From Chromera velia (taxonomy: Eukaryota > Sar > Chromeraceae), in contig JAHBMJ010000148.1 of NCBI GenBank assembly GCA_018398765.1, positions 1-54,705 of the forward strand: a stretch of 54,705 bases of DNA. Direction: 5' to 3'. A program made the translations under genes and the position numbers. Positions 13,559 to 47,627 of this stretch are shown here, piece after piece (the stretch's first letter is position 1; every line of letters starts with the position of its first letter). The notes beneath the pieces were generated by a model. It was not told where the DNA came from and searched no databases. It saw only the letters and a program-made list of their open reading frames with translations.

Positions 13559-13616
<58 letters not shown>

Positions 13617-20402: not shown

Positions 20403-20925
20403 ATGGATCTGCGGGCGGAGCCTGGACAGGTTTTGGGGGATTTGGGGGACGAGGAGGAGATGCAGGAAGCCTTCGATCAGCAGTCTGACGGTCAGAGCGT
20501 GGACTCACAAGACGAGGAAGGGGACGATAGGGGAGAGAGAGAAAGAAGGTTGCAGAATGGCAGAGAACGGGTTCGGGTTGTGGCAGGCCAGGATGGGGAG
20601 CCTGGTGGTCCTGTGCGTCATCCATATCAGCCGTATATGAAGGAAGAGGAGTGTGAAAAACTGGTCGCACACTCACGAAAACTGAGTTTTCCCATGCCGT
20701 TTCCCCCCCCTGGTGCTGGGGGCTCTTCGTCTTCTGCCTCTGCTGCCTTCATAACTCCCACAAAGGAGCTGGAGGGTTTGATCGAGGGAATGAACAAACT
20801 CCTGGTGGGCGCCGTTTGCCGGGGCCCCCTGAAGGTGGTCTCTTCCTCGGACAGCGAATTTCGAGTAGCAAAGGTCAGTCAGACTTGGAGAGACAGACAG
20901 ACGGACAGATAGATACAGGTAGACC

Positions 20926-20980
<55 letters not shown>

Positions 20981-21021
20981 CGACCGACCGACCGACCGAC
21001 CGACCGACCGACCGACCGACC

Positions 21022-21052
<31 letters not shown>

Positions 21053-21973
21053 CGACAGACAGACACAGACAGACAGACCGACAGACAGACGCACCGACCG
21101 GCTGCGCGACCCACGAACCCACTGACGGACTTGTTCATACACCCCTCCACACACACTCACACACAGGGGGAGAGAGAGAACAAGAGAGGGAAACTTCTAT
21201 GCCTTGCAAGGGTCTCGCTTGGATTCCGATTCCCATCCATCATGCCCGCTCCCACTCAGTCTTCTTTCCTCTATGACGTTCACTCAACGAGAAACGTTTC
21301 TCGCCCGTCCAACTTCACTGGATGAAGAGACAGATGATCTATGGATGACCCTTGGTGGCACTGGACCCGACTTTCTTTGCATTTTATGGGATAACGAAGG
21401 TGAGTGCCTGCCTGCCTGCAGTCGTTTGTGACTGTGACTGAAGGACCGGAGTTTCTCCTGAATCGCCACATTTCAGTTTTGGGGCTCCCTGACAGGAATA
21501 GAGCGTGGCCGGGAGATATCGTGGTGGTCTCGGTGAGTCAATTTTCCTCCTCCTACTCTTGTTCTTCGCTTACTTGTCCTTGTGCTTCTGCCTCCTGTCT
21601 CTCCTCTGCTGTGATTCCACTTGAAAAAGCTTTAGGTTTATATTTCTCCTATGGCTTGCCAAGAGAGCCGAGAAAGGACAGCAATGAAAGAAGGAAGCGA
21701 ACAAGAAATGACAGTCGGACAGAAAGGGTGAACGCTAGAGCTTGAGAAACAGGGTGATCTCTATTCTTTCCTGTCCTTTTTTCGAATGTGCTTCCACTCA
21801 GATTTTGGCTGTGGAGGTGTCCCGCTCTTTCCTTGACAAGCGGAGGGCGGCGTCCGATGGACAAAGGGGTCAGTCTGTCTGTCTGTCTGTCTGCATGCGC
21901 CTCCCTCTTCGACTTTAATTTCCTCCCTCTTTCCCTTCCTCCTCTTCCTCTCTCCCCCCGGTCCCCCCCTTTG

Positions 21974-22005
<32 letters not shown>

Positions 22006-25000
22006 TTCTTTCTTTCTTTTCTTTCTTTCTTTCTTTTCTTTCTTTCTTTCTTTCTTTCTTTCTTACTCTATCTCTCTTCGGGCGTCTTTGTGTGTCGGTG
22101 ACGGTCTCATTCTCTCTTCGTCTCTCTGTTCGCTATGGCTTAGTGAGCCCATTTGACATACTGTCACTTACACCTCTTGTTCTCCTCTCCGTCTTCCTGC
22201 CGTCTTCTCTTTTCTTCGCCTTCCGTTGTTTCGTCTCCCTCACCGTGAGTGAGAGCGTTTCCTGATTTCCTTTTGCATCTGTTTGTTTGTTTGTTTATTC
22301 AGGTGCAAGTTCCTCGTGCTCTCCCGAATTCTCTTTTGACCTCCTCAACTGCTGCACCATATACGGATCGGTCCTGAGATCCGACCCGCTGGAGGAAGAT
22401 CTTCGGCCTCTGCAGTTCGTGTGCAGGTTCGTTTGTTCGTTCGTTCAATCGGTTGTTCGTTGTTCGGTTGTGTAGTTGTGTAGAGGGACAGTCGGGGTCC
22501 TTCGCTTTGTTTCTGGCAGTCGAGTTCTTTCGCATTTACGGACTCTGTCCCCTTTCGTTGTGCCTCACAAGATCCTCACTCGTATGGCTCTCCATGTCTG
22601 TGTCTCGGCTCCACTTCTGTACATTCTTCTCGGCCCCCATTTTCCTAGTGATTCAGACGGCACTCTCCCCGTCGTTTGTCTGCCCGTAAGATACAGAGAG
22701 AAACTTCTGTCTGCGAGTCAGCCATTCTTCGCACTTCGGCAGCTGGGGATCTGTTGGCGCGCAAAAGGGACATCTTCTGCAGTCGCAACGGAAGTCAAGA
22801 CTGTAAATGCAGACAAGGGAGCAACAATTTGTTTCGGCTGTGCTACAACGGACCTTGCTCCAGCATATGCTTAAGGTTTTTCTCATTTCCTCTTTGCTCT
22901 CTCTCCTGTGTGATGGCATGGGTTTCATTCTTTTTGTCTCTGCTGCAGAGTGAACAGAATGCAGGGCCAGGACTCCGATTGGCTCTTCATCCCGCTGCAA
23001 GTCGGTGGCTGTATTTATCTCGTTTTTTGCCTCCCCAAAGAAGGAAGAAGAAAGAAGCAATCTGGAGTCTCTCTCTGTCTTTGCTTTTCCCTCTTGCGGG
23101 TCCATGCTGCCCGTCCTCTTTCTGTCGTGTCTCTCCGAGCTGTAGGGAGACAGTTCTCTTCTCTTCACTTTTCTCCACGGACTTTTCCTCCTGCCTCTTT
23201 CTGCATTCAAGCTTGAGTGCCACAAAGGCCGAATGCTCTCGCTCCACCCCCTCACGCTCCTCACTCGGTTTGCCGCCTTCCAGACGGAGTTTCCTTCCAT
23301 TCGGGCGAAGGTCTCTGGGACCCCCCTTGCGAGACGGCCAGACAGGGGAGAGAGACATCAGAAGAGGACAGTCGAAAAGTGGAGAAGCCTGCTGGCTGCC
23401 TTCCCCACACACCATCTGTATGTGATCAGGTGAGTTAGTCTCCTCCCTCTCTTCTTTGTACTGGGTCTTCTTGTCCCCTCTTACCCATCTGATTTTTATC
23501 TCTCTGTCTGGCAAGGTAAAAGCTCCGGTCGGCCCATGTGTTCATCAATCAAACCTGCTTCGGTTCCCACCCAGAAGATCGCGTAAATATCTTCTGCAGT
23601 TACTGCTGTTGGTGCAATGTTCGGTCCGTTTGTGTTGGTATGGTTCATTCGTCTGTGCCTGCTTGCGTACCTGTCTGCTTGTGCGTTTCCTCCCAGGATC
23701 ATCAAATGGTCTCGGAGGCACGTCCGTCCGCTTGGTCGGATCATCGGTCGTTTTCGTCAGCCCCTGGCGTCGTTTTCTCTCGACAGGATCCTCTCGATCA
23801 AACACACGGTAGAGCTCGATGCCGTCACAGACGCACCAGCGCTTGTTGTGCAGAAACAGAAAGAGAGGGAGAAAGAGGGAGCGGGGAGAGGAAATGGAAC
23901 TAGAAGGGGAAGAGGTGGGGCTCTTTCAGGAGGGTGGGTGAGGGGACGGAGACGTCTTTCGGGAGACTCCGGAGATGCGGAGGAGGAGCACGACGCATTC
24001 GCTATGATCTCTGATGGCGACGAGAGTGCCCGGTCGGAATCGTCAGAAAGCGCTGAGGAGTCCTCTGAAGAAGAAATGGATTCAGATTCAGAAAATGGGG
24101 GAGGCAGATCGAGATCGATTTCGGTTTCTTCCTCTTTCTCCGTTGAGTCGTGCGATGGCGACGCGAATGCAAATGGGAAGGTGGAAGGAGACAAGAGAGG
24201 CAGCGGGGCTTGGGCCGCACACGCGAAAACTCTCCTTATCGAGGGGCTGAGAGAAGACACCGACTGCCGAAAGGACTTCCGTGAGCTCCGGACTTTCTCT
24301 ATCGATCCCCCAGGGTGCAAGATTCCTGAGGACGCGCTGTCTGTGGGTGGTTTGGACCCGAAAACTGGAATTCGGTCAGGGGGGAATGGACTGGGAGGGC
24401 AGGCGGGAGGACAGACTGACGGCTGCCGAGACGAAGAAGAAAAGAACAAAGTGTCGGGAAAATACTTTCTGTGTTTGTTTTGAGACATTCAGTCTGAAAA
24501 TGATATGAACGAAAAAGACTTTCCTGCACATGGTCATTGGAGAATCTTTCTTCGTCTGCTTATGCACAGCTTTTTTCATGCGTTGCTTTTGGTTTTGTTG
24601 GATCAACAGGGTCTCTCTCTCTCTGTGTGTGGGGGGGGGGGGGGGGGNGGGGGGGGTCTGAATCACTGGTCTGTCTGACATGGGTATGTACTCACTGCAT
24701 GCAGGTCCGTGTACGTGCACATTTCGGACGCCGTTCACATGGTGCCCCCTGGATCCTCTTCGGAGACGGCAGCAAGGAGACGGGGGAGCGATGTGTTCCT
24801 ACACGACCACCACGGGAGGGAGAAGAAACACGTGCAAATGCTGCCAGGGGCTCTGGTGCATCAGGCTGTTTTTGTGAAGGGTCAAGATCGGCTGGGAATA
24901 ACTTTCAGGTTCTTCGAATGTTCTTTTTTTCCTGCCCCTCCCTCCCTTTCTTCCTGCCTTCCCTTCTTTCTTTCTTTCTTTCTTTCTTTCGTTCGTTCGT

Positions 25001-28000
25001 TCGTTCGTTCGTTCGCTCGTTCGTTCGTTCGTTCGTTCTTTCTTTCTTTCTTTCTTTCTTTTCTTTCTTTCTTTCTTCCTTCCTTTCTTTCTTTCTTTCT
25101 TTCTTCCTTCCTTCCTTCCTTCCTTCGGGGAACGAAGGACGTTTGGAGGTCTGTTATGTATTTGGTGCAGTCAGGGGTCATCGTTGTGTCGATGTTTCTT
25201 TCTCCCCTCTCGCTACTGCAGTTGCGCTTTGTTTTGACGAACAGAACAGAGAGGCACCTAAATGTTCCCCTCTCACACTCTCACAGAGGTACCAAATAAG
25301 GCAGGCCCTTCTATTTCTGCGGCCATTCTGCACAGGATTGGCACTGGTCCTCTTGCTTCAAAAGGACGTCTCCCCCATCCTGTTTGTCTTTGGTCTTCTT
25401 TCCCCTGCCTGTGCTAGCACGGCTGTCTGCAAAGCTCTACGAGATGTCCATACAATTTCGTGCGCTCCGTTTCTTCCGCCCTTGCAGGTTCGATGTGCAG
25501 GTGGGGGACTCGAGTGGGAGACAGTTGGAGGTCCTTTCATGTCGCGTGTTCCGTTCGAAGCTGAGATCCCAGGCCACGCTCTCGTACAGTCAGGCTGCAG
25601 AGCTCCTGCAGACGGGGCGAGTCGGGGTGAAACAGAGAGGAGCAGAGAATGTGAATGTAGGGGCAGGGAGGACGGAGGTGGAAGAGGAACTGATGGAGAC
25701 CGTACAGCTGCAGAGAGAGGTCGGTTTGTTCGCCTATCGTTTGTCTCTTTGCTTTCGTGCAGAGGGGGGGGAGTGTGAAGAGAAAAGGAGGGGAGGGCAT
25801 CCAGTGATGTGAAGAGACGTTTGAGTGAAAGAAAGAAAAAAGGATTGATGGGTCTTGCTTCACATTCGTGCGTTCCAAGAAAGTGAATTAAACGAGCCAC
25901 ATAAGTCTGTCTGTCTCTCCATCTTTCTGTGTGTCTCCGCGTGTGTGTGTGCAGATTTGCGAAAGTCTCCGTTTCCTCTCTCTGCTCGCTGAGGGCCTCC
26001 GTGAGAGGCGAATGGAGAGAGAGGGGACGCTTGGGATCGTGTATCAGGAAGATGACTTCCCTCCAGAGGTAGGGTCGCCTTGTTTGCCTTTGCTTCTATT
26101 CTGGTGGTTGTCCACTTGCCCCTTCTTCTCGACAGTTTACTTTTTGTGCGCATGGAGTAAGGAGGGTACCTGATGCCGCCCTTGTCTTTTCATGACGGAA
26201 GCGCAATGTAGGCTGACATGGTGTGTGTGTGTGTGTGTGTGTGCGTGTGTGTGTGTGGATCTGCAGGAGAAGATTTCCAGGCAGTTGGTGTCCGAGCTAA
26301 TGATCTGTGTGAACTCGTGGGCAGGTGCACGTCTGATGGAGAAGTTGGGGGGGGACGGTCCGAGGTGGGTGGGTCCTTGTTGACTTTTCTTTTCTTTGCC
26401 TTTCTTCCTTTTTTCTTTGCTCTTTTTTTCCGGCTTTCAGTTTTTCTATCCTGGGAGACCGACTTGAGGATTTCTTCCCATACTTCTTCTGTGTCTTTTT
26501 CTTGTAACTAGGCTCTCACAGGTCCTCTCGTTGCTGGCAGACAAGAACTGCCTCTGAGATGAATGAAGTAACTGAGCAGACAGAGATCATACACAGTCTG
26601 TCACCAGGGCTGTGGTTGGATGCTCGATCATCTTCCGTCCCTTCACGAAGAAGACGCAGATGCTCGTTCTGACACACGTTCACCGTGTTCAAAAAGGAGA
26701 TAAGGAAAAACGCTCCACATCCAATAAATGGATGTACACTCACTTTGACTTCTCCGCTGATCCCTATGAATGAGCATGCATGCATGCAGACGGGTCCATC
26801 CCTGCCCCGACCTCCAGTGGACAGAGGCGGCGGCTTCTCTCTCTCTGGCTGCCGTCCCAATGTCTAACGTCAGTTGTTTGTTTGCTCCCTTGTTTTGCAA
26901 CGTTCCCTGTGAACTGAAAATACAGAAAGCAACAGTGAAAGTCAGACAGACGGAGAGAAATGAGGCATCCATCCAGCGACCCTTTTGCTTCCACTATCGA
27001 TCCCTGATTAATCCGGCCTGCAGGAGGAGCGTGCCCGCCTCGCCCCAAAGCTCGACTTCTCCTCCTCCGTCACTGCATGTCACGACACAATGATCAGAAT
27101 CGCAGAGCAGATCAAGGTGGCAGTCAAGGACGCTCAAGAAAACGCAGAAGACGATGAGGACGAAGAGGATCGACCCCACAAAGTAGATGAAATGGTCCGC
27201 TCGTTCGCTTTGCTTGCTTGTTTGCTTGCTCGGTTGTTTGTGGGAAGGAACAGCGGGCAGCAGGGAAGGGAGCGTTTGCTCCTCAAATCCTGCCTGCCTG
27301 TCCTCCTTTCTGTCGAGGTGAAAAAAGCGGCTCTGTTTATTTTTGTTTTGTTGAGGTCGTTTTGCTATTTGCCTCTGCATGTTTTCTTGGTGCGCTGCTT
27401 TTAGAAGGAACCAGACAAACAGCCAGCAGGAATGCAAACGTCGTGAAGTGCGTGCACCTGTCTCTCAATCCTCTCCTTGAGCTTTTTTTGTGTTCACTTC
27501 TTCCTTGCTCTTGTTGGGCCTGCAGATTCGAAGTTTTCTGTTTGCAATTCGAGGCCGCCTGTCTTCCCCTGAATACTTCTACATCCCCGTGGATGCCCCA
27601 AAGGAAAAAGAGACCGTGAAAGGACACTCCAAGCCTGACGACCTGTTCAAGGCCCTTAGCCAGAACGCAATCGCACACAGCAACATCCAGCAGCAGAAAC
27701 AGAAGGCGATGATGCAAACGAGAGAGTTAGTCGGTCAGGCAGGCAGGCAGCTCTCTGATGAATCCACGACAGAAGCGAAAAAGAGAGACGTCTGAGGAGG
27801 ACGTTTTTTTTGCTTTCATTGGTGTCGTTTTTCTTTTGGTTGATGTGGGAATGGCTGTGCGCAATCCACAAGTATGTCGACTCGCAAACTGAACGCTCGT
27901 TGTTATTTCGGCATCAAGACGAACACTGTGCACGTGTTTGCATGCAGGAACATCGAAAATCTGGAGAGGGACGCAGAGGAGTATCTGGCACTTGAGGAAA

Positions 28001-31000
28001 AGGAGGCCCGCTCTGTCTATCTGAAGAGTGTGCCTTTGGGAGAGGTCAGTCTGCTCAATCCTCTTTTTGAGCTGTCTGTCTTTCTGTCTGTTTGTCAGAA
28101 CTTTGCCTGCAACGACAAAGATGGCCCACATATTTTCTTGCCATCGGACATTCGTTTGGAGGGTGTGAAAGTGATCTGAGGTCACGGTGGCGTGCTGCAC
28201 TCAGGGTCGCAAGGCGGTTCTCTGAACGAGACCAGAGAGCCCGATTTGCATTGATCTTTCTTCTCCTTTTTTGCCCTCTATCTCTTTTGTTTTCTTCACT
28301 CGATCCAACAGAAGTTGCATTTTTTCCTGTCTATTTGACTCTCTACCTATCTGCATGCATGCACTCAATCAATGATGCAGGGCGAGGAAGACTCTCTGAG
28401 GGACATTTTGGGTTCTGTGGGGGACCTAGAGTCCTTCTGTCTCTTTCCTCCTGGAGAGTGAGTGAGTGAGTGAGTCAGGGAGGCAGGCAGCTACGGAGGG
28501 GTTCGGTCATGAGGGACTCAGCGGGAGGGAGGAAGGGAGGTTGTGTGTGTGTGTGTGTGTGGGTGGCTTGGGNNNNNNNNNNNGGGGGGGGGGGGGTGAG
28601 TAGGCGAGTGGCTGGGTGGTTAAGCATGCAGCCCGACCAGCCGGGAGACATGCAGTTTTCGGACTTCTCTTTTTCTCTCAAAACTTCTTACTGACTGACC
28701 CACTTACTCACTCTCCGTTTCCTTCTGTCTCTCTGTGTCTGTCCTCCGCTTCGGTCTCGTGATTCATCCAGCCTCTTCTCTCTAGCTAGGGATGATCACT
28801 CCATGGACAAATCCCTGATTCCTCTCTCTCTGAATCCTTCATCATTTCTTCCGTCCTGCCTCCTGCCTGTCTGCAGAGGTTGGAATGCCCGGTGCGGTAT
28901 TGCAACATTCAGAGAGCCTTCAGCAGCTGCACGTTGCCTTAGCGAAAGGAGAATGAACGGTCTGTCACTGTGCTTTCGTGTGTCGTCATGTTCTGCTTTT
29001 TTTCGGATTCCTCCGTCCATTTTCCTCCTTCCGTCATTCCTTTCTGATTCCTTTCCTCCTCTCTTCATTCTGTCTTAATTTATGAATCCATTCATTCATT
29101 CATTCTTTTCTCCATTCCATTCCTCTTTCGCTTCTGTTCTAAGCCTTCTCCCGCGAAGGTTCTTTTGGATTCTTTTTTTCGTTCTTTCTCCTCCTGTGAT
29201 TCTCCGGTACAGGTCCCTTCAGCGCCTGTCTCGGGAACATTCAAATTCTTGAGTGGAGGGATAAGACAAGGGAAAGCCTCGAGCAGAGGCGCGAGGTCAG
29301 TAGCTCCTCTTGGCTCGGTCTTGATGTTTGGTTTCCTTCCTCCGGCTCGGTCTTGCTTCTCTTTTCAGAGTGGAGGAAAGCTTTGGTGATTGGCTCGAGG
29401 TGAATCAAAAATGCTCGCTGTCCTTTCTCGGCTCATGTTTCTGCTGTGCTCTCCTGCGGTTGATGGCTGTAAGACATTTTCCTTCGACCTACAGCTCGGA
29501 GAGGCATTGAGAGGAACGAGAGAGAGGGATCATCCGTTCAATTACTTTTTTCTTTCGGTATTGTTGATAATTCTCTTCTTGCCTGTGCTTTCATGAATGA
29601 TTCCCTTTGCTCCTTTCCCCTCCTACCATGCCTTCCTTCACTCCAAGTATGCTATGCTGCCTGCCTGCAGGTACGGGACATGGCGGCGCGCATTAAGTGC
29701 AGACGGCAGGGCATCCCCGAACCCCCTCCCCTTCCACCTCCCCCTCCACCACAGGCACAGCAGAGGGCTTTCCCGACTGACTACAGACTCGCGCCCCCTC
29801 CTCCAGAGCCCTCAGCAAATACAAGAAGCCCTGCAACTCTGTTTCCCCAAATTCCGGGGGTGATGCCGGGGCCCGTTGCCGTCTCCGGTCCCGTCTCGTC
29901 CTTCCCGCTCTTTGCAACAGACCCCTACTTCCAGGTCACATCTCCCATCAGGAGGTCAGTCGGTTCGTTTCTATGTTGCATGCTCACCACTCTCACTGAT
30001 TCGCTTAGCACGCTCGCATTCACAGACTGACTCATCCTCTCAAGAAGCAACGCATTCATTGGAGTCTCAAGTGCGAATGTGCGTTGATTTGCTTTCCGTC
30101 CCTGCGCCAAAAGACTGCCAAATGACTCTTGAAGCTTTGTGACACTTTGCGTCTCCTCTCCTCTTCTCTTCTCTTCTCTCCGTGCAGATACGTGGACCTA
30201 ATTGGCTTGAGACTGCTGCTTTTACCGTCCGCTTTCCTCCACTCACTGAGGGACTCCGCAGAGAAAGAGAATGAAGTCGAAACAGCGCAGGGAAACAAAA
30301 AGAAGAAAAAGAAGAAGAGGGGCGACGGCGAAGGCGGGGCTGGAGGATCCGAACCACCGCCGAGCGACGAGGGTCACATGTTGCTTCCCCTGGAGTTTCC
30401 CTCTTCCTCCAAGGGACACGCGCTCCGGAATGCGTACAGAGACTGGGTGAGGGAGCTGCCCTCAACGGTTCTCAGGTTCAATCTCTTGAACAAAAGGGTC
30501 GGTCGGTCAGTTCAGTCCTCTCTTGCTCCAATGATCTTGTGAGAAGAGAGGAGAATAGTCGAACGAACAGGCATGAAAGAAAGAAGGGCGGTTGAATGAC
30601 GGGGACAACGTTGGGGGCATCCGGAAGGTGGACTGACTGACGTGTTGATGTGTGTGTGTACTTCTGTGCAGTAGTTTTGCTTTTTGTTCTGCCTGCCGTG
30701 TTTTTCACACCGCTCTAAAGGAAGAAAGACGCCTTAGAAAAAGAAGAAGAATGACGCCGCAATTCCTCAAGAGAACCGGTGATCGCATCTTTGCTCGAGC
30801 CCTCCTGTACTGCAGCAAGGGGGAGGTAGTGGAAACCCCAGACTCTCACCATCTTTCTCAGAATGTGTTTGTATCGAGTAGTGAGTGCCTTGCCTGCTTT
30901 TTCTCATTGAGTGCATTCAGGTGCGGGAGGTCCAGAAGGAGTTTGCCCTTCTCTCCCTGTGCCGTTGGATTGCACACGCAACAATCCGGGTGAGGGCCCT

Positions 31001-32003
31001 GGTGGGACCCCTGAGACCCTCCTCTATACAGCTGATCTTCCCAGGGGACTTCTCCCACAAACTTCCTATCAGGACAATGAGACTCCCTCTCGGATCTCTC
31101 AGGTCTGTCGGTCGGGTCAAAGGCCTTCTTCCTCTCTTTTCTGCTTCCAGCCTTCCTTCCTTTCTCTCATCGATACATGGTGGTAAATTTCACTCAGCCT
31201 CCAAGAGCCTTCGCCGCTTCTTCTTTTCTGTCTGTCTGTCTGTCTGTCAGGTCGGAACGCATTGTCGCGGCCCTGGAGGAAGCGGTGGTTCGGAGGCTGA
31301 AGTCAGACAGAGTGGTGATCAAGCCAGACTTCGACGTGGCCAACCCGGGAGGGGGAGGGGGGACCCCCCCTCCTTTTGTGGAAGTCAGCTAGTTGAATCT
31401 GCATGGATTTGATTCGACTGTTTTGTACTCAGGGTCGGATATGTGAAAAAGTGATGAAGCACTGAATCGGTCAAATTCAATATAACTCTCTGTCAAGGAG
31501 TCTCGGGCTGACTCCCTTTGTGCCCCGACCAGATTCATCGGTCTTCAATTGGAAAAGAAAGAAGAACGGCAAAAAGCGGCCAGGAAACATGGTAAGAAAG
31601 TATGCTTCTGCATGAGGAGTGCAAATCAAGACTCAACCAGAGAGGGGGGGAGGCAGGAAAAGAAATACCGTTCTTCAACATCTGTGTGGGGCTGTCTCAA
31701 CAGACCAAGAGCCAGTATGAAGCCTGCATGTGTTTTTTCATCGGGTGTTTCATAAATGTGTCGATCCTCGTCGTCGACATACATGCAGGTCGCTCTAAGT
31801 GCGTTCAAGACTTCCGTTGACGTGGAACTTGGGCTGAACAAGACGCTGCCAGTTCCTTGGGGAGCGTTGTCGGTGATGGCGCTGCACCTGTGCGAGCTCT
31901 CTGACCCACCCCTTCCCCCTGTGCTCCTGCCGGACCCTGAGGGACCCCCCCCTCCTTTCGTCATTTTTGCCAAGAAGAGTCCCGATTGCTTCCGGTCAGT
32001 GTC

Positions 32004-32055
<52 letters not shown>

Positions 32056-32057
32056 GT

Positions 32058-32095
<38 letters not shown>

Positions 32096-35000: not shown

Positions 35001-35610
35001 ATTGTTTCCACTTTTTCGATTAAGGCACAAGCATAATAAATCATGCAGCCACATCTCTCTGCTCGAAATTCTTGTCGATGCGCGCACGAATCCATCCATG
35101 TACGAGAGAAGCTGAACTACTGAATGTATTAACATGACCGAGACAACCATTTCTGGATGAACAAGAGAACGAACGATGATGGAATGAAATGCAGATCACG
35201 GCCCTCCAGTCCCACGACAGAGAGGTCTTGAAGGCGTTGCGGGCCCTCGGACGAAGAGGACAGGGGATGCAGAGCATGACGACTCTTCTTGCTGAGAAAA
35301 TGGTGCGTCGGTCGGTCGGTCGGTGGATGCAGACCGAAAGGGTCGTCGGGTTTGTTCTGTAAAGTCACTCGGTTGGTGCGCTTCTGTGTGGTGGGAGGGA
35401 AGGGCTTTGGTTGGCGTGATGAGTGGAGGGAAAGGGCATGCATGGGGGATCAAGCTGCTGCCCTCTCTGCATGCGTTGTCGAAGAATATGTATTTGTAGC
35501 AATTAATCTGCATCTTTCCTTCGTCATTCTGCCTCATTTCTTCAATTCGAAAGAGGACCAGCTTCTCTGCGCCGGCTCCTGCGGGGGAACGGAAATCGTC
35601 CAATGAACAG

Positions 35611-35641
<31 letters not shown>

Positions 35642-37129
35642 CTCCTGCCGGCCAACGCACGCACGTATGCGCAGGTTGTTCGAAGCCCCGAGACGACAGC
35701 GTGGCTCCGAACCCACCTGAAGAAGAAGGAGGGAGGGGGCTGGTGGAGGGATCTGCCCCCCACAGTGCTGTCTGCCGTCGGCATGCCCGAGGCCAACGAG
35801 TTCCAAACAAAGGCGGTCAAAATGGCTCTCGGACATTCAATCAGCTGTGTGCAGGGCCCGCCAGGCACAGGTAGGGGTGTACGACTGTTCGTTCCTTTTC
35901 TTCTTTCTGTCTGTCTCTGGGTCGACTTTTTTCTTTCAGGCGCACACACACACACAGCAACATGCACAGGTTGGCCCGGGACTACCTGATTGACGTCCCA
36001 TGCCTGCCTAATGCGATCTCGAGAGGACGCACTCTTGGACTTTTTTGACGTCAGGGGCAATCAATTCAACTCTGACTCTGATCGTTTCACATTCTTGGGC
36101 AATTCGGCACTCTCTCTTCAGGGAAGAGCGTGACGATCGTGCACATCGCCAACGCCCTCCTGGTGCACATGGATATTCTGAATAGAGAGTACAAGCTGCC
36201 CCGTCAGAGGGTGCTTCTCTGTGCTCCTTCAAACAAGGCTGCAGGTGGGCCGGGGGGGGAGGGCTGATAGTGGGCATGGCGTGGGCGTACCTAAAGAAAG
36301 TCTTTCTTGCGACATGCAATTTGCACACAGCAATTGTGTACTTAGATCTGCTCAACTGTAGACTCGCTTCGGCCGCTCTAAAGCCCCACGCGGCATCGTT
36401 CTTGAAAGAGGTGCAATTTTGCTATTGCGTAAGCGTCCTTTGACTCTTCTCGTTCCGTCCCCCCCCCCCCCCNCCCCCCCCTTTTGTCTGTCCGGGTGAC
36501 TGCAGATGCCCTCCTCCAATTGCTAGTCCAATTTCTCGAAATGCGAAAGAAGGAGGAGGAAAAAAACAGAGGAGGAGCATCAGCTGCATCCCAAAACAGC
36601 GCCATCGGAGAACTGGACCCGCAAAAACTCGTCACTCGAGTCTACGCGCGGTCGATTGAACAGAAATTCTGTCCCTCATGGAGAGTCGATGCAGCCATGC
36701 CGGTGGGTGGGGGGGTCCATCAAGTGGTCTCTCTGTTCATTTAACTGTGCATCAAGAATTCGCATAACCCAACTTGGTGAAAAATACTTTCTTTCTCTCT
36801 GGACCTTTTTCTTCTCCTCTTTTTGATGCATACAAAAAAACTTGGTGAATCCAAACGTCTTCCTCCGCTCCCACCATGTCTCTGCACCTTTCTCTTGCAG
36901 GTCCGAGAGGACTTCGACATCGCCCCTTCGCTTCGCCGATTTGCTCTCCACGAGAAGGTGCGCCTGTGTACTCTGCATCTCAGTGCGCCGCCTTCCTTCA
37001 GGGAAAAGAATTCTGTTTGCCGTTCCTTCCTCAAAGGAGAGCACCCAACTTCGGTCCCCCCCCCTCCTTCCTCCTCTCTCTCTCCCTCCCTTTCTCTCCT
37101 CTCTCTTTCTTCCTCTCTGTCTCTCTCTC

Positions 37130-37210
<81 letters not shown>

Positions 37211-40200
37211 GTGTGTGTGTGTGGAAGGAAATGTACGTGTGTGGAGTCTGCAGGTCCGAAAGCGGCACCCTGACATCGCGCAGTGGGAGGCGATGATGCG
37301 TCCGGAGTCACCTCAGGACAGGAAGAATTTTTTCTTTCTCAACCAGGTCTGTCCTGCATGTTGGTCGGGCCTGTCAGCTAAGGGAGACGACACAGAGAGA
37401 CAAAAGAACAGAAAAGAAAAGAAAAGAGGAGAAAAGAGAAGAAGTGTGATGGGGACTGCGGGTCAAAACGACATTTTGGTGCTTGGCAGCGAAATAAGTC
37501 CTTTTTGTGCGTCCGTTCAATCTGTTTGGGGGGCATGCGTGAGGAGGGCCGCCGGTATCGGAGAGTCGGGCCGAAGGCACGGGCTTAGACGTTGACCAAA
37601 ACTCTCTCGTTTCCTCATTTCTCCCTGCAGAACGAGATCAGAGCGCACGAAGACAGGATTACGGAGGTCGAGCAGGAGCTCATTGGCGAGACCAAGTTCG
37701 TCGTCGCCACCTGCGACTCTGCACATCTCCGCTCGTCTATGGCGGTACGTCTGCTTGTTGAGAGCAGGGAGTGACGTATGTTTAGTGCAAACATGAGGAG
37801 GCACATCGATTCTAGACCCGATTGAAACAACGTACAAAGTCCGAGATTCACTCAAAAGCACATAGACACACAGACAGATACAAAAAGAGAGAAAACAAGA
37901 GAGAAAGGGCGGGCGAGGGGCAGTGAAAACCTATTGGTGAAAAACTAACTGTGTAGAGTCTCTTCCCCCGTCCCGGTGGAAAACGCTCACATGCAAACCT
38001 GCCAGTCTCCTGAAGAGGCCTGCGGCTCGAGAAGTAGAAGAGTTTGAAAAGGAGAAGCAATTGATTTAGATTGGCTGACTGACAGATCCCTTTCCCCTTT
38101 TCCCTTCTCTAAGATTGAACGCGAACATTCCCTTACCTAACGCTAGAAGTATCCGCAACTGGATACGAATGGCGATCATGGCGCGTCATGGTCATAGTCA
38201 CCCCCCCTGAATCTCTCAGACCGAGTCCTTTGAAACTGTCATCGTCGACGAGGCCGCACAGGCAGCGGAGGTCGATGTGGTCCTGTGCTGTCTCAAGGCA
38301 ACAGAGCGCATTGTCTTGGTCAGTCTTATCTTTCTTTCTCTTGATCGTTGGCCTTCTTCCTCTTTCCAGTTTGTCTTTATTTCTCATCAATGTGTATCAA
38401 CGGAAGGGCTGGCGAGAACATGGAAGATTGGAGGGCAAAAATGGTGCTGTGTTTCGCTTCAACTTCACCCTCTCAAATCAGAAACGAGGAGAGGCTATGT
38501 TGACCCAATGTCCTTTGTGCCCTCTTCTTCGTTTTCCCCTCAGTCAACCGCTTTCGTTTCGTCACACTTCATCACTCTATGTCGGTAAGCAAGACCTGAC
38601 TGCAGGCACTTTCTTTCATCATGCATGTGGAAAGAATCTGACTGACTCCGTCCTTGCCTGCAGGTGGGAGATCACCAGCAGCTGGGTCCTGTGGTGACGG
38701 AGAGGAATCTTCTCCCAGGAGTCTACAGGGCGCTCTCCCAGTCTCTGTTCGAGAGGATTTTCGAGGACGGAGGGCAGGGGCAGCCGCCGAAGAAAGGGGA
38801 CAACAAACGGCACCTGCTTCATGCACCGGAAGAGGAGAGGGAAAAGAGAGTAGATGTCCACAAGAGCCTGGTTCCGCACATCACTCTGAGGAAGCAGTAC
38901 AGAATGCACCCTGCAATTCGGGAATTTCCTTCCAGAGAATTCTACGCAAAGCAACTGAAGGACTCGGAGGAAATTGAGACCATGAAGGTCGGTCAGGCTT
39001 GTAGAGAACTTCTTTCGAGACGACTGACTTATTGTGTTCCCTCTCTTCGCTTTTTGCACTTCTTTTTCTCTTCATGCCTCCGATCTATTCGCTTTCTTAC
39101 CGTTAATACATGTTTTCTTCGTGTCCTTTCTTCCGGCTCGCATTCCACCCACCTTTCTCTTTTTCCGATAAGCTGATTTTCGCTCTGCAATGTCTTTGCG
39201 GCAGCCCCCGGAAAGCTTCATCCTCCTCTAGGAATGATCGACATTTTGTTGTACCCTCCCTGTCCGCCTGCTTGCCTGCCTGCTCGTGTGCGTGTGCGTG
39301 TCTGTCTGTCTGCTCGCTGAACATTCGAATGATCTGTGTGTGTGCAGCTCCTGGGGGACGACTCGGAAGTCTTCCCCTGGCCTGCCGGTCCCGACTGCCC
39401 AATTTTGTTCTGTGACGTGCGCTGTGCCCACAAAACCTACCAGGTCGGTCTGTCTGACGGGTACTGTCCGCAGAACACTTTTTCTAACGGCGTTGTGTTT
39501 TGGGAAAGAGGGATCGAGTTTTTTGGCCCACAAAACAATTACACAAAGACAAATAGGAGCACACAGTGTGTTGCAATTTCCAGGAACAGCAGTATGCAAC
39601 ACTCCCAAACAGCAGAGATTGGGAATTAGTTTTCTTTGTGCAGAAGGAACGAAGAACAAATTTCTTTGTTGCCGCGATTTGCACTTTGGACCATTTGTTT
39701 GTTCTCAATCCCAACAGCCGCAGAGGTTGGATGTTCGCGATCAGGACTGTTTGTCTTCTCTCTCTCTCTCTCTCTCTCTCTCTGGTTCAGTCTTGCGTTT
39801 ACACCTCGTTTGGATGTTGATGGGTTGATTGGATCGCAGTGGGTGACTCTGTTTCTTTGGCCTCAGTTTATTCTGAATTCCCTTCGTTGGTTTTTGTGTT
39901 GACTTAATTCCCTCCCTTAATTCTGTTCCGTTCCATTCGATCTCGCATGCAGAGTGCGCGGGAGGGGGACACGGAGGGACAGGCGGGGGCGTCAACTGGT
40001 CTCTCCACGAAATGCGTTGCCTTCTCTCTGGTCAATCAAGGTTGGTCAGTTGATTGACTGTCAGGGCGGGGAGCGAGCAGAGCGGCAGGACGAACTCTGA
40101 GCAGGTACCCTCATGTAAAGGAATTTCATCGAGTGGAGCGCTCTGTGCCTTTATTTTCGTTTTGTCTGTGCTTGACGAGTGGTTAGGGGCTTCGCATAGG

Positions 40201-43200
40201 TTGGGGTATGACGCTTTTTGTCCAAAGATATGTCTGTCTGTCTATCTCGCTGTTTCGAAGGAGGTAGGATGCAATGCAACGAGACAGCACTCTTACTTTT
40301 GACATTTTCTCTCAGAATCTCCTTTGCATGTGAGGCTTCCCCTCGATGCTGACACTCTGCTTCAGTCGATGAGCCCTGATTCACTTTGATTTCTTTCATG
40401 TGGCTGTCTGGTTTTTTTTTTTTTACCCAATAACTCCCGTTGAACAATATGCTTGGGACCCTCCACTCGACTGCGTGCAGGGGAAATCCACATGGTTCTC
40501 AAGTCAGTAGTCTCTTTCTTGATCACGTTTTCTTTCTGCTTCTCTTCCTTCCTTCCCTGAGTCGATCGATCGATCGATCCGTTCTCTCTGTCCTGCCTTG
40601 ACCCTGTGCCTGCATGCCGTCTTTCTTGTGGTGTATGTGCCCTTCCCCCTCTCTATGCTCGTCCCTTGGAACGTCAACAAACCCTCCCCGTTTGATCTTC
40701 GACTCTGCCTCTCACATTCCTGCGACTCCTTTAGCTCGAGTTCCTTCCCCTCTCTTTCTTCTCTCCCTGCAGGTGCTACAAGTACCTCCTCGCCAAGGGG
40801 ATACTTCCCAGGCAAATGGCAATTTTGACGCCCTACAAGGCACAAGCGGTTCGGATCCGTTTTCTTCTGGAGCAACACGCAGAGCAGGCACGTCACGTCA
40901 GAATGGGGCAGGCAGGGGATCGTGCACGCAGCAGCCAATCCTGTCAGATTGATGCGGCCGATTTTGTTCAGCTGACACTTCGAGCTACGAACCAGAGGGG
41001 TGTGGTGCTGATTGGATAAAACCTCAAAACGCCCCGCCCCTGCATCCGCATGCCTTTGCCTCTTCTCCTTCAGATGTTCCATTCTTCCTGTATATTTTCT
41101 ATTTGTGTATGCTTGCAGAACGGCCTCGCTTTGAGTCTGTATTGTATTGTATTATTGTATTTTATTATTGTGTATGTTTGTTTACTCTTCCTGTGTTTTT
41201 GTGTGGGCATGCTTGCAGAACGGTCTCGGTTTGAGTCTGGGAGAGTCCGGAGAGGAGATTCTTCCCGTCGTGGGGACTGTTCACGCTTTGCAGGTACCTC
41301 GGTGTGAACGGGAGGGGACGGGGGAGAGGTTTTAGCGTTTTTTTGTGTTGGTGTCCTTCTGCTTGTCTCGCTTCTTGGTCTGTGAGTACGACTGCTCGAC
41401 TGAGTCACTTTGCTGTTTCTTCACCACAGGTGCTCGGTCGGAAAGCAAGATAGATCGTTTGGTACTTTCATGTCGGTGCATGTTTGGTTTGATGAGTTTG
41501 TTGCAGGGCATGGAAAGGGAGTACGTGTTGCTGTCGTTTGTACGGTCATTCTCGGAAGGAGAGCTTGCGTCGGGGTGCTACCATGAACTCGGGCTGCCGG
41601 CAGAGCTGCTGGCGTCGGGGGGGTCCGGGAGGGACGGGGTGGGGCTGCCTCGGCAGAAGGGGGGTGAGAGGGTGTTCAGGGAAGTTGTTCGGAGAATGAT
41701 GAAGACGTCTCTCGGGTTCCTGTCCAACCATAGGTCGGGGGGAGGGGGGTGCTTGTCTGTTGTTTTCTGTGTAAGCAGGAGCATGTATCTACCTTCTCAC
41801 GCACGCACGGGAGGCTCGGTATGTCTTCATCCGAGGGATTCGGAAGGAGGCATACTGATGGCTTGATCGAGCACATGTATGTTTGCGTCTGTGTGTGTGT
41901 CTGTATTTGGATGTGTGTGCAGGATTTTAAATGTGTGTCTGACGAGAGCCCGACGAGGCCTGATGTTGTTCGGGAACGCGACCGTTCTCTCTGCAGACTC
42001 TTCTCTGGAACGCTTGGTCTGTCGGTCTGTCGGTCGAAAGGACAAGAGTGCTTCCTGCAGGGTTGGAAAGGTCTTGTGTTTGGGAGGACTATTCTTCTGT
42101 CGAATATTCGGACGTGGGTGTCGCTGGGTCTGTGAGAAAAAAATCCCATTTGGGTGAATTTTGGGGAGTTTGAAATTTCCGATCCATCTGTACTCTTTCT
42201 GTCTCCAACTCCCTTTTTTTGTTTATCGGCGAGCCGGCGACAGACCGTCAGCACACGCTCACATGCCAAAATACGAGATGAGAGAGCCTTTTTTCTGCCT
42301 GATTCATTCACAAAATGAGTGCGAGGTGCTTGAACGACTGAATGAATGGGTGTGGGTGAGTGCAGGTTCAACACTTCAGGAAGAAAAAGGCGTTGATGCT
42401 GTCAAGTGCCCTGGAGAGAGAGTTGATCAGACAGGACAACGCGAGCGGACTCGGAAAGGCTACAGTAAAGCTGCAAAGGGAGAGGGAGAGACTCGAAGCA
42501 GAGAGGGCGGGCAGGGCAGTGGCAGGCAGCGGGGGGGGGTTCCCGATGGACCGGGACAGAGACCAGCTTGCGAGTTTGTTCTCTGCAGGGGCGTCTCTAT
42601 CTGTGTTTGCGTCTCCGGACGAAGTGAATGGGAATGTGAACGGGCAGGGGGGGAAGGAAGCCGGGGGCATAGAGGACATGTCGGATTTGGAGCGTGCGTG
42701 GGGGGATATTTGGGATGAGGCCGGGGGAGAGGGAGGGAACGACCCCGCATTCAGAGGAAGTCAAGTAAGTCGATGCACCCGGCCGCCGATACGCTGAAGA
42801 CGCGATTGAAAGACTTCTTCTGTCCTTTTTCCTTGCATTGAAACAGCTTTGCGAAGGGCATGGATGGGGGATGGTCTGCGGTACTCGCATCATCTTCTCC
42901 TCTGGTCTGACTCCCTTTTTCGTCGTCGCCGCTCTACACAAACCAAAGCGTCCCTTGCCATACACCGTCAGCGTCAATCACCAACATCATGTGCGTCTGT
43001 TTGCTCCCTCTCTCTCTCTGTGTGTGTGTGGGTGCACAGGGGGACCAGAGGACGGGAAGAGACGGGACCGGACTGGGGCCTCCATCCATCGCAGATGTGT
43101 CACAATCGCAATCGCAACTCATGTCGGGGCGTCAGAGCGAGGTCTGTCCGCCCTGTGTCTCTGTCTCTGATTTTCTCTTTTTGGTTCGTCCTGCTTTACC

Positions 43201-43724
43201 GACGAGAAAAATCAGAATCAGTAGTCTCTATTTGCATTTCTGCAAAATGGCAACACGATGGCATTTCTGTTGATTGCAGCGAGGGAGCTCGTTCCGCTCG
43301 CAAAAATCTCATTTTGAAATCTGCGCGTGTTCCTCTTTTTGTGTTTCGGTTCTTGCTGTTTTCTTTCTTTTAGGTGGACTCAGGCAGTGAGTTTGACTTT
43401 GAGTCTTCTGATGAGGAGGAGGACCCGCACGGAGCTGGGGGCAAGGGGAGAGGAAACGGGGGGTTCTCTGGGGGAGTCGTTGGGGGGTTGTCCTCGAATT
43501 TCGATAATTTCAGGTGGATGGGTGGGTGGGTGGGTGGGGATCGCACGTTTTCCTTCCTTTTCTCTTTGGTGGGGATGCACGAGACAGCGTCGGAGGGAAA
43601 CGAAGGGAGAGGGAGGCAAAAACTGTTTATGTCTATCACTATCACTTTCAAGTGCTCGGACTGCATTGGCTCACATTTGGTACTGTTCACTTCTGCTGAT
43701 GGAGGGATCCGTCTTTTCAAGTCA

Positions 43725-43763
<39 letters not shown>

Positions 43764-43800
43764 TCCCTCTCCCCCCCCCTCTCTCTCTGTCTGTCTGCCC

Positions 43801-43840
<40 letters not shown>

Positions 43841-45188
43841 ATCCGTCAATGTATCTTCCTCAAGCTGTATCTATTTGTCCGTATCTCTGCTTGTGCGTTT
43901 GTCCCACCGCCTTTCTCCCTGATTCACTCTCTCCTACCCTCTTCTGCTCCTCCCTCCCTCCCTCCCTCCCTCCCTCCCTCCCTCCCTCAGGGACCCGTTG
44001 GCAAACACCGCACAGGGGGAGGGGGAGTTCACATTCCAGAGAAAGAAGGGGAGGGGAAGAGGGAGGGGAGGAGGGGGGGGAAGAACAGGGGTTGTGGCTT
44101 CAGGGCTGCCTCCCCAGTCTCCGCCCTTCGCCCCGGTATCCCGCACGTCGGCGTCTGGAGAGGGAAGACGGAAGGCCCCTCAAGCCCCCACGCCCTCCCC
44201 ACCTGCACCAAGCAGAGTCAATCCAGGAGTTCCAAATCGCATACAAGAGGAGCGAGCAGGACTGCGTCGAAACGAGGAGGACTACGATGACTGGGCTCCT
44301 CCCGTACCTCCTTCTCGGAAGGATATGAGAAGCGAATTCAGTCCTTCTCCCCCTCCCCCCCAAAATCAACAGAACCACGGTGCTTACAGAGAAAGAAACG
44401 GAGGGGGGGGGAGGGGGCGAGGTGGGTTGCCTTCCCCTCCGGGATTTGAGCAAGCCCCCGGCATGGACTTTGTATCCTCCTCCCCTCTGGAGACGCCCAC
44501 TAGGGGCCCCTCCGGACCCCCTCGAGGCCCCACCGCCTCCACCTTCCCCTCCTCGAGTTCTCGCACAGACAGAGAAAGGGGGGGTATGTATCCACATGGA
44601 GGGAGAGACATACATGAGTACGGGCAGTACTCTGGCAGTCACAGTCCGTATGATCATGGTGGTAGAAGGGGGAGGGGAGACGGGGGGGAGTTCAGGGGGG
44701 GCATGCAGGGACCGGGTTCTCCCTTCTCAGGAGGAGGCGACGAGGAGCATCTCTGGAGAGGGACCGCACCGTCCCCACAGCCGCCGCCGCCTCCTCCCCC
44801 CCCTCCCCCACCGCCTGGACCCCCTCCCCGGCTACAGCAGCCGCCGCAGCAACAACAAGCGAATGGAGAGCCTCCACAGTCCTGCCACCTGTGCCCTCAG
44901 CCTCTGGGGCTCTCACGAGAGTCCCAGAAAGCCCAACTTTGCCTCAGTTGTCTGACGGAAATGAGAGACGAGTGGGAGTCAGTCAAGAGACAGGCAGGCA
45001 GGAAGGAAGGTGACTCAGAGAGAAGAGGTGTGCACCAATCAATTTACATGCGTACACATGCCTTCCGGTTTTCTTGAATGTTCTTTTTCTTTCGTCACAG
45101 TTCCCTCCAGGAGTACCAGATTCTTGCCTACTGTGTGAGACGCAGGCCGGCTCTTGAACCCACCGGCATGTGCTGCCGGGGGAATTGA
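20403..45188 (+). CDS. RNB exoribonuclease-CCCH-UPF1-like helicase fusion protein, HELZ2-like
   Basis: About 56 exons, roughly 3,060 residues. The ATG sits in CACCATGG and the stop is at 45,186-45,188. Nearly all splice phases agree; the exon coordinates are split over the domain entries that follow. Order: acidic N-terminus (1-105), OB/cold-shock-like segments (~105-420), RNB domain (~600-1,390) with a large internal insertion, a linker (~1,390-1,740), CCCH finger (~1,741-1,765), complete SF1 helicase (~1,870-2,490), and an RG/Pro-rich tail with a C4 knuckle. RNB proteins degrade RNA 3' to 5'; UPF1-like helicases translocate 5' to 3'. Vertebrate HELZ2 also combines RNB with UPF1-like helicases (helicase-RNB-helicase). 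Here only the downstream helicase is present and a zinc finger lies between. Two RNB metal ligands look changed. The role in RNA turnover is inferred from the domains. Confidence 0.85.
20880..21095. repeat. (AGAC)n / (CGAC)n tetranucleotide array in first intron
   Basis: AGAC tetramers switch to a central block of about 11 CGAC tetramers and back to AGAC. The array sits in the first intron of the fusion gene and blurs the start of the second exon. Confidence 0.95.
21970..22070. repeat. (CTTT)n microsatellite in intron
   Basis: CTTT/TTTC tetramers with single-base slips, in the intron between exons 21802-21868 and 22303-22426. Confidence 0.95.
24622..24657. repeat. Poly-G tract with one undetermined base
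   Basis: G run with an N at 24,648, just upstream of the exon starting at 24,705. Its true length is uncertain. Confidence 0.9.
24958..25127. repeat. (CTTT)n-(GTTC)n-(CTTT)n-(CTTC)n array
   Basis: Pyrimidine-rich tetranucleotide array with a central GTTC block, in the intron after the exon ending at 24,908. Confidence 0.95.
26219..26258. repeat. (GT)n microsatellite at intron end
   Basis: GT run ending 9 bases before the acceptor of the exon at 26,267. Confidence 0.95.
28573..28597. other. Sequence gap (11 N) flanked by poly-G
   Basis: Undetermined bases at 28,573-28,583 followed by a G run, inside an intron. It does not break the gene model. Confidence 0.95.
30921..33437 (+). other. Linker region after the RNB domain (possible S1-like fold)
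   Basis: Exons: 30921-31102, 31251-31383, 31789-31994, 32332-32419, 32743-32924, 33159-33239, 33333-33437. In canonical RNB enzymes an S1 domain follows the SPIRR/helix region. [13 protein letters not shown] followed by [10 protein letters not shown] lies where it would be expected, but the match is weak. The block with [18 protein letters not shown] and then [13 protein letters not shown] resembles the linker that precedes the helicase in HELZ2-like proteins (inference). It ends with [20 protein letters not shown]. Confidence 0.5.
32006..32104. repeat. (CT)n(GT)n compound microsatellite
   Basis: CT run passing into a GT run with TA interruptions, directly after the donor at 31,995. A GGAA array follows at about 32,205-32,240. 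Confidence 0.95.
33834..34386 (+). other. CCCH-type zinc finger exons
   Basis: Exons 33834-33920 and 34239-34386 join within a Lys codon (AA|G) to give [19 protein letters not shown] plus VFAH. The spacing is C-x8-C-x8-C-x3-H, close to the C-x8-C-x5-C-x3-H of RNA-binding CCCH fingers but with three extra residues in the middle. It precedes the helicase, as a CCCH finger does in HELZ-family proteins. Single-stranded RNA binding is the expected role. Confidence 0.75.
36460..36480. repeat. Poly-C tract with one undetermined base
   Basis: C run with N at 36,473, about 25 bases before the exon at 36,506. It likely acts as part of the pyrimidine tract. Confidence 0.9.
37065..37228. repeat. (CT)n(GT)n compound microsatellite
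   Basis: C/T-rich stretch passing into about 45 GT units, in the intron before the exon at 37,254. Confidence 0.95.
39755..39784. repeat. (CT)n microsatellite
   Basis: CT run inside the intron between exons 39348-39443 and 39953-40040. Confidence 0.9.
41104..41240 (+). repeat. Tandemly duplicated splice-acceptor junction
   Basis: About 35 bases spanning the intron end and exon start (ATGCTTGCAGAACGGCCTCG at about 41,109 and ATGCTTGCAGAACGGTCTCG at about 41,209) occur twice, about 100 bases apart. Only the downstream copy continues in frame into motif V, so the upstream copy is a decoy acceptor. If used, it would add a TATTGTATT-rich pseudo-exon. Confidence 0.8.
43727..43840. repeat. (CT)n and (GT)n compound microsatellite
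   Basis: CT run, C-rich break and GT run in the last large intron (43,514-43,990). Confidence 0.95.
43948..43990. repeat. (CTCC)n microsatellite abutting an acceptor
   Basis: About ten CTCC units end in CTCAG, the acceptor of the large exon at 43,991. The repeat itself is the polypyrimidine tract. Confidence 0.95.
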
Positions 45189-47507: not shown

Positions 47508-47510
47508 TCT

Positions 47511-47626: not shown

Positions 47627-47627
<1 letters not shown>

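What the first reader, a model, noticed from the sequence alone, without database searches (positions are those of the whole stretch)
20403..45188. Single polypeptide joining an RNB exoribonuclease, a CCCH finger and a UPF1-like helicase
The sequence shows RNB signatures (IDPPG..., [21 protein letters not shown]) and, about 30 exons' worth of protein later in the same phase-consistent frame, a complete SF1 helicase ([32 protein letters not shown]). RNB nucleases and UPF1-like helicases are normally separate proteins; vertebrate HELZ2 is the known exception. Finding the combination in an apparent alveolate alga suggests either an old eukaryotic fusion lost in most lineages or an independent one. 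It would make a self-contained unwind-and-degrade machine, with a CCCH finger as an extra RNA grip.
Basis: partly seen in the sequence, partly recalled or inferred. Interest (0 to 1): 0.88.

Follow-up and report, generated by a model that had tools for sequence, protein, structure and literature searches.

The report
Helicase fused to crippled RNA exonuclease
One very large gene of an intron-rich, probably alveolate genome joins an RNA-eating enzyme module, whose active site looks damaged, to a complete RNA-unwinding motor, a pairing otherwise known from the animal antiviral protein HELZ2 and found here in dinoflagellates too.

Summary
A hand-curated 51-exon plus-strand model (20403 to about 45138; 50 of 50 introns GT-AG) joins a DIS3-type RNase II (RNB) module, a CCCH-like finger and a complete UPF1-like helicase. 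At the point I judged most open to a two-gene reading (31383|31789), homologues strongly favour one gene: proteins of Prorocentrum, Symbiodinium and a metagenome (2062 aa on a 6338-base contig) have the same order, and two of them match both sides of it. The interpretation needs three corrections. (1) None of five family members keeps the four catalytic aspartates of RNase II (window D-I-E-D), against 16 of 17 other RNBs compared, including 7 of 7 HELZ2s; so 'unwind-and-degrade' is doubtful and an RNA-gripping pseudonuclease like yeast Ssd1 likelier. (2) The finger appears inserted in the helicase's 1B domain. (3) The helicase is next to HELZ2's second helicase in four of four trees (starred in three); the RNB tree is compatible but weak. 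This favours one old fusion without proving it: IGHMBP2, DNA2, MOV10 and HELZ were not sampled. I rate it a new variant of the HELZ2 kind. No transcript data; species not identified.

The parts
20403..45138 (+). whole gene, 51 exons, predicted protein 2933 aa; 3' end uncertain
   Evidence: curated splice model, 50 of 50 GT-AG; colinear tblastn of relatives
21422..23429 (+). exons 2-6: cold-shock/OB-like region of the RNase II module
   Evidence: tblastn P0030 95-133 at 21419-21535, E 7e-6; fold search with a weak model of the relative P0029 61-780
24268..27152 (+). main RNB stretch (Pfam residues 539-859), exons 7-13
   Evidence: PF00773 E 1.8e-34
24298..24339 (+). RNB active-site motif [18 protein letters not shown] in place of D-D-D-D
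   Evidence: alignment of 22 RNBs
29938..30200 (+). TSPIRRYVDL (region of RNase II Arg500), split by intron 29955-30187
31384..31788 (+). intron at the possible gene boundary; TAG at 31390 just inside it, in-frame ATG at 31783 just before its acceptor
   Evidence: donor ranks 32 and acceptor 25 of the 50 curated ones (leave-one-out), and within the top 3.1% of GTs and 1.6% of AGs of 20403-45100; homologues match on both sides
31789..31994 (+). exon 24, first exon after the junction, homologous to P0030 749-806 and P0029 751-808
   Evidence: tblastn E 8e-4 and 6e-4 against the window
33916..34302 (+). CCCH-like finger C-x8-C-x8-C-x3-H across exons 28/29, apparently inserted in the helicase 1B domain
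35675..42390 (+). UPF1-like SF1 helicase core
   Evidence: AAA_11/AAA_12; nearest solved sequence Upf1/NAM7 E 2.5e-35
35855..36129 (+). Walker A GPPGTGKS, split by intron 35871-36121
38247..38261 (+). motif II DEAAQ
38667..38693 (+). motif [12 protein letters not shown]
41930..41959 (+). motif [12 protein letters not shown]
43991..45027 (+). exon 50: low-complexity tail with CxxC...CxxC near its end, resembling a Cys/His-rich stretch in the tails of P0001, P0029 and P0030
   Evidence: by eye

Best explanation
One gene encodes one large RNA-remodelling protein. The C-terminal motor is a UPF1-like SF1 helicase with its motifs intact, so it should hydrolyse ATP and move on RNA (inferred from the family). 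The N-terminal part is a DIS3-type RNase II barrel (cold-shock-like domains, RNB) whose active site has lost two of four aspartates; I think it mainly holds single-stranded RNA or a 3' end, as a pseudonuclease clamp, rather than digesting it. A CCCH finger inserted in the helicase 1B domain gives a further RNA contact beside the translocation channel. Together it would be a tethered RNP-remodelling or surveillance helicase. Shown: domain order, homology across the junction, motif state. Inferred: RNA holding, lost or weak nuclease activity, cellular role.
For: Same order in P0001 (Symbiodinium natans), P0030 (Prorocentrum cordatum) and the metagenomic P0029 (2062 aa on a 6338-base contig, under 150 bases to spare), plus a diverged relative P0003. 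tblastn is colinear across the junction for P0029 and P0030. Four catalytic aspartates: 0 of 5 family rows against 16 of 17 others; P0003 keeps none of the four, and its SPIRR reads APMNR. [quoted passage not shown] the second Asp bonds the terminal 3'OH. PMC3293843 passage: D209N abolishes activity; PMC10579198 passage: RNase R D272, D278 and D280 matter for activity. Ssd1, a pseudonuclease, is among the fold matches (weak model). Removing the CCCH changes the profile match to UPF1 1B from E 0.0023 over 42 columns to 0.00013 over 70 (hhalign probability still only 54%); an equal-length decoy cut gives 0.0025, reversed 0.62.
Against: P0001, P0029 and P0030 keep the most critical Asp (D209 position), and the window's Glu there could still bind metal; a cyanobacterial RNB (P0153) also reads D-V-D-D, so loss of the second Asp alone may be tolerated. 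No transcript, no assay. The window's CCCH and that of P0030 match no Pfam finger. The 1B region was too weak in the structure model to show the insertion, and UPF1's 1B boundaries are recalled.
Confidence: 0.62

Rival explanations
1. Active unwind-and-degrade machine: the helicase feeds unwound RNA to a working 3'-5' exonuclease in the same chain, as proposed for HELZ2.
For: The RNB fold is kept, with first and fourth Asp and the TSPIRR arginines in the window. Human HELZ2 degrades a poly(A) RNA 3'-5' (passage of PMC9839780). P0153 is a natural D-V-D-D sequence.
Against: Second Asp replaced by a hydrophobic residue in all four members that keep a recognisable motif, third Asp changed to Glu in the window, none of the four kept in P0003. 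HELZ2 keeps D-D-D-D in 7 of 7 rows.
Confidence: 0.2
2. Two adjacent genes: an RNB gene ending ...PPPFVEVS* at 31392 and a CCCH-helicase gene starting at ATG 31783 (or 31756).
For: A stop begins 7 nt beyond exon 23 and an in-frame ATG 6 nt before exon 24; but a stop within 12 nt is seen at 4 of 50 junctions and an ATG within 60 nt at 12 of 50. The tblastn hits on the RNB side of the junction are weak (E 0.005 and 0.047).
Against: P0030 and P0029, each one protein, match exon 22 and exon 24 with 24 and 26 residues between; ordinary splice-site scores at the junction; P0029 fills its 6338-base contig.
Confidence: 0.05
3. Independent fusion: an alveolate DIS3-like RNB joined to a UPF1-like helicase separately from HELZ2.
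For: The RNB tree joins the family to HELZ2 only weakly (68/41), and a DIS3 grouping is not rejected (p-AU 0.152). Beyond the helicase's own stalk/1B the linker shows no clear homology to HELZ2. In one search, HELZ2 helicase 2 with UPF1 is not rejected either (p-AU 0.206). HELZ2 has an extra N-terminal helicase and an intact RNB.
Against: Helicase trees: family plus HELZ2 helicase 2 at 66/96, 98/98 starred, 96/95 starred, 99/97 starred; family with UPF1 rejected, p-AU 0.003 and 0.007.
Confidence: 0.35

Closest known systems
HELZ2 (helicase with zinc finger 2) of animals
   Same: RNB module followed in the same chain by a UPF1-like helicase; the helicase groups with HELZ2 helicase 2
   Different: no N-terminal helicase found, no OB_HELZ2 match, no catalytic D-D-D-D; CCCH-like finger apparently inside 1B
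Ssd1 and other fungal RNase II pseudonucleases
   Same: RNase II fold without the full active-site signature, expected to bind RNA rather than cut
   Different: Ssd1 is not described with a helicase in the passages seen; it descends from Dis3L2 in fungi (PMC8097288), while the origin of this RNB is unresolved
UPF1 (regulator of nonsense transcripts 1)
   Different: no UPF1 CH-domain match; grouping with UPF1 rejected
DIS3/Rrp44 and DIS3L1/DIS3L2
   Same: closest solved RNB sequences (DIS3L1 E 8e-13, RRP44 E 1.6e-11)
   Different: active-site signature not kept here; no PIN domain found at E<=1; fused to a helicase

Membership tests
HELZ2 | RNB and UPF1-like helicase in one polypeptide, RNB first | tested here: met
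HELZ2 | additional UPF1-like helicase N-terminal to the RNB | tested here: not met
   none in the model (starts at 20403); P0029 and P0030, scanned whole, have one helicase each, after the RNB; no Pfam match at E<=0.01 in six unspliced frames of 10405-20402, which could miss intron-split domains
HELZ2 | intact RNB catalytic aspartates (7 of 7 HELZ2 rows) | tested here: not met
   window D-I-E-D
HELZ2 | OB_HELZ2 domain (PF25049) | tested here: not met
   not listed at E<=1; present in P0004
HELZ2 | helicase groups with HELZ2 helicase 2 | tested here: met
   four of four trees, starred in three; short UPF1-like families not sampled
HELZ2 | RNB groups with HELZ2 RNB | tested here: inconclusive
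   not rejected, p-AU 0.393; 68/41
active RNase II/DIS3 exoribonuclease | RNB domain | tested here: met
   PF00773 E 1.8e-34
active RNase II/DIS3 exoribonuclease | D-x5-D-x-D-D signature | tested here: not met
active RNase II/DIS3 exoribonuclease | 3'-5' RNA hydrolysis | not testable with these tools
   needs a bench assay
UPF1 | SF1 helicase motifs | tested here: met
UPF1 | CH (zinc-binding) domain PF09416 | tested here: not met
   not listed at E<=1
CCCH zinc finger | C-x8-C-x5-C-x3-H profile match | tested here: inconclusive
   pattern C-x8-C-x8-C-x3-H; no Pfam finger in the window or P0030; below cut-off in P0001 (E 0.0019) and P0029 (E 0.0061), zf-CCCH_UNK; P0030 is named C3H1-type by its source
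Ssd1-type pseudonuclease | RNase II fold with broken active site | tested here: met
   sequence; fold only on a relative's weak model
Ssd1-type pseudonuclease | descent from Dis3L2 | tested here: inconclusive
   RNB tree unresolved; the DIS3L2 test set held a misplaced row

The most novel reading that the evidence does not exclude
The RNB-helicase core of HELZ2, known from vertebrates as an interferon-induced RNA-restriction factor, is an ancient eukaryotic fusion older than the split of animals and alveolates. In the alveolate branch (a window species that groups with dinoflagellates) the nuclease decayed while the helicase stayed intact and took a CCCH finger into its 1B domain. The ancestral and lasting function would then be the motor plus an RNA-holding barrel, not degradation.
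Probability: 0.48. Interest if true: 0.72.

Novelty: new variant of a known kind. Interest (0 to 1): 0.6.

Why it matters
HELZ2 is studied as an interferon-stimulated factor that restrains LINE-1, and its helicase mutants matter more than its RNase mutant there (PMC9839780 passages). A protist relative whose helicase is intact and whose nuclease site is broken is a natural experiment pointing the same way, and it makes the age of the fusion testable. It also suggests a pseudonuclease joined to its own motor, and an annotated 'UPF1' of Symbiodinium that does not group with UPF1.

Tried and rejected
Two-gene model at 31383|31789: rejected on homology and splice scores. Bacterial origin of the RNB (suggested by a TSPLRR variant shared with P0149): grouping with the five bacterial rows rejected, p-AU 0.014 (P0149 itself was left out there). 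A HELZ2-specific linker as proof of one fusion: hhalign gave three colinear but weak segments (E 0.013, 0.038, 0.083), two of which lie in the helicase stalk/1B that UPF1-like helicases share; that run also held a badly cut UPF1 row (P0002), left out, where HELZ2 against UPF1 gives 1.1e-9 as a positive control. A C-terminal TPR as in the dinoflagellates: no Pfam match at E<=0.01 in three unspliced frames of 42301-52299 plus strand, nor on the minus strand of 44710-54705; intron-split domains could be missed. Rfam: no match in the window at gathering scores. RNB structure model too weak for active-site geometry (pLDDT 52.7; TM-scores of its matches about 0.4); the helicase model (pLDDT 57.8) aligns with UPF1 only from about residue 245 on, so it does not test the 1B insertion. 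First automatic gene models were over-split and were replaced by a hand-curated one. The test of the family with DIS3L2_Schisto plus P0157 (p-AU 0.0005) is not used, as P0157 itself groups with bacterial rows.

Rows dropped: one search left out P0089, P0064 and P0075 (no helicase cut found); one search dropped eight rows of the set (P0003 among them) and the six HELZ2 helicase-1 rows, and added seven; one search dropped four rows and the six HELZ2 helicase-1 rows, and added one HELZ2 row and 14 of 23 candidates; one search used 24 of 80 fetched loci (two cut at a stop) with 27 of the rows, again without HELZ2 helicase 1; one search dropped P0003 and P0149. One search was run after one search had shown long branches, so its star is not an independent prediction. 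Several rows, P0029 among them, are flagged for odd letter make-up. Protein searches admitted only candidates of 0.55-1.75 times the query length and scored only the roughly 8000 sharing most words, so IGHMBP2, DNA2, MOV10 and HELZ are missing and other members may be too. Row labels UPF1, SEN1, DIS3, DIS3L2 and some HELZ2 are mine, from source names and Pfam domains.
Full report
What is there. One search finds five of the seven quoted motifs in single frames of the plus strand (24301, 24712, 38247, 38667, 41930); the other two are split by introns. A hand-curated model has 51 exons from ATG 20403; all 50 introns are GT-AG, 34 end in TGCAG, and the chain reads 2933 residues. Because I chose the exons by eye, open phase is not independent evidence. 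The automatic plus-strand score is 629 against 93 for the minus strand, with models trained on this region, and its gene runs on to 46062. Pfam finds RNB (E 1.8e-34) in the part from exons 1-23 and AAA_11 and AAA_12 (3.6e-40, 6e-38) in the rest. Solved structures nearest by sequence are DIS3L1 and RRP44 for the RNB and Upf1/NAM7 for the helicase.

One gene or two. Reading on from exon 23 meets a TAG 7 nt past its end, and exon 24 has an in-frame ATG 6 nt upstream, so a two-gene reading was possible. It is unlikely. The junction's donor and acceptor are ordinary for this gene (ranks 32 and 25 of 50, leave-one-out) and within the top 3.1% of GTs and 1.6% of AGs of the region. More important, single proteins cover both sides: P0030 of Prorocentrum cordatum matches with 667-724 at 30924-31106 (E 0.005) and with 749-806 at 31789-31953 (E 8e-4); P0029 with 672-724 at 30939-31106 (E 0.047) and 751-808 at 31795-31953 (E 6e-4). 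The hits of these two in the gene are colinear, although low-complexity stretches also give scattered false hits. P0029 (2062 aa) sits on a contig of 6338 bases, under 150 bases more than it needs. Symbiodinium natans P0001, named UPF1, has the same order. P0003 is a diverged relative from a eukaryote collection; its species was not given.

The nuclease. In an alignment of 22 RNBs the four catalytic positions read D-D-D-D in 16 of 17 rows outside this family (7 HELZ2, 2 DIS3, the DIS3L2 row and six others; the exception is cyanobacterial P0153, D-V-D-D) and in 0 of 5 rows of the family: window D-I-E-D, S. natans D-M-D-D, P0029 D-V-D-D, Prorocentrum D-I-D-D, P0003 E-P-N-M. Passages of PMC8097288 state that the first, third and fourth Asp are thought to hold magnesium, the second bonds the terminal 3'OH, and homologues lacking some or all may be assumed pseudonucleases; passages of PMC3293843 and PMC10579198 state that D209N abolishes RNase II activity and that D272, D278 and D280 matter in RNase R. 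By that rule all five are pseudonuclease candidates; the window and P0003 are the strongest. I do not claim that the others are dead. A fold search with a weak model of the P0029 module matched DIS3L2, Rrp44 and the pseudonuclease Ssd1 over most of its length, with TM-scores about 0.4.

The finger. The window's C-x8-C-x8-C-x3-H and its equivalents in the four relatives (shortened in P0003) align with each other, and aligned with UPF1 and HELZ2 the relatives' fingers fall between two stretches that match UPF1's 1B region (1B limits recalled). Cutting the finger out changes the profile match to that region from E 0.0023 (42 columns) to 0.00013 (70 columns, bridging the site; hhalign probability 54%); an equal cut elsewhere leaves 0.0025 and a reversed profile gives 0.62. 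Against HELZ2 the same cut moves E from 0.021 to 0.0027 (decoy 0.12). Domains 1B and 1C together shape grip and processivity of UPF1-like helicases (passages of PMC6138625), so a finger there is well placed to alter grip; that is inference.

Origin. Four helicase trees put the family next to HELZ2's second helicase: 66/96 with 40 rows, 98/98 starred with 33 rows, 96/95 starred with 45 rows and 99/97 starred with 51 rows including 24 prokaryotic helicases. Grouping the family with UPF1 is rejected (p-AU 0.003 and 0.007); HELZ2 helicase 2 with UPF1 is not (p-AU 0.206). The RNB tree makes the family one clade (99/97; 100/99 without P0003) but leaves its sister open: HELZ2 68/41, DIS3 not rejected (p-AU 0.152). 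Short helicases such as IGHMBP2, DNA2, MOV10 and HELZ could not enter the searches because of length limits, so sisterhood is among sampled rows only. On balance I favour one old fusion over two.

Mechanism and limits. Best reading: an RNA helicase with an intact motor that carries its own RNA-gripping, probably non-cutting RNase II barrel and an extra finger in 1B; it would strip or remodel RNP or act in surveillance. For HELZ2 itself, helicase mutants affected LINE-1 restriction more than the RNase mutant did (passages of PMC9839780). No expression data, no assay and no genome search were possible (genome search did not complete). The species is not identified: the gene style suggests a chromerid to me (recalled, no call), and the trees place the protein with dinoflagellates. 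Paper searches for 'RNB domain' with 'dinoflagellate', 'HELZ2' with 'dinoflagellate', and 'Chromera velia' with 'exoribonuclease' and 'helicase' listed one, two and two papers, none of which appears, from title and abstract opening, to describe this protein; wider searches showed only part of their hits. Only open-licence papers were searched.

Noticed in passing
window 53374-54105: Degenerate tandem array, 35-base unit, about 21 copies.
   Followed up: no
window 54499-54650: Inverted repeat: 74-nt arms, 89% complementary, 4 nt apart, and a 42-nt direct repeat at 54577 and 54664; possibly the end of a mobile element.
   Followed up: no
window 50780-51126 and 52650-52823: Tandem repeats with 42- and 84-base units, multiples of three; no Pfam match on the minus strand there, nor on the plus strand up to 52299.
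   Followed up: partly
window 41111-41240: The intron before exon 44 holds a near copy of that exon's acceptor and first bases about 100 nt upstream (seen): a possible tandem duplication or alternative acceptor.
   Followed up: no
protein P0003 (eukprot, 2856 aa): Relative with a wholly degenerate RNB active site (E-P-N-M, SPIRR to APMNR) and a shortened CCCH: a more advanced pseudonuclease of the same kind.
   Followed up: partly
protein P0001 (Symbiodinium natans), residues 1-about 700: Named UPF1 in public records but not grouping with UPF1; it has some 600 residues more before the cold-shock region than P0029 and P0030, perhaps a chimeric gene model.
   Followed up: no
protein P0153 (Phormidesmis, cyanobacterium): RNase II-family protein with D-V-D-D in place of D-D-D-D: loss of the second aspartate outside the family studied here.
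   Followed up: no
proteins P0029, P0030, P0001, C-terminal parts: They end in a Cys/His-rich stretch and TPR-like repeats (TPR_2 E 0.0004 in P0029, below the curated cut-off; weaker in P0001 and P0030); no TPR was found downstream in the window.
   Followed up: partly
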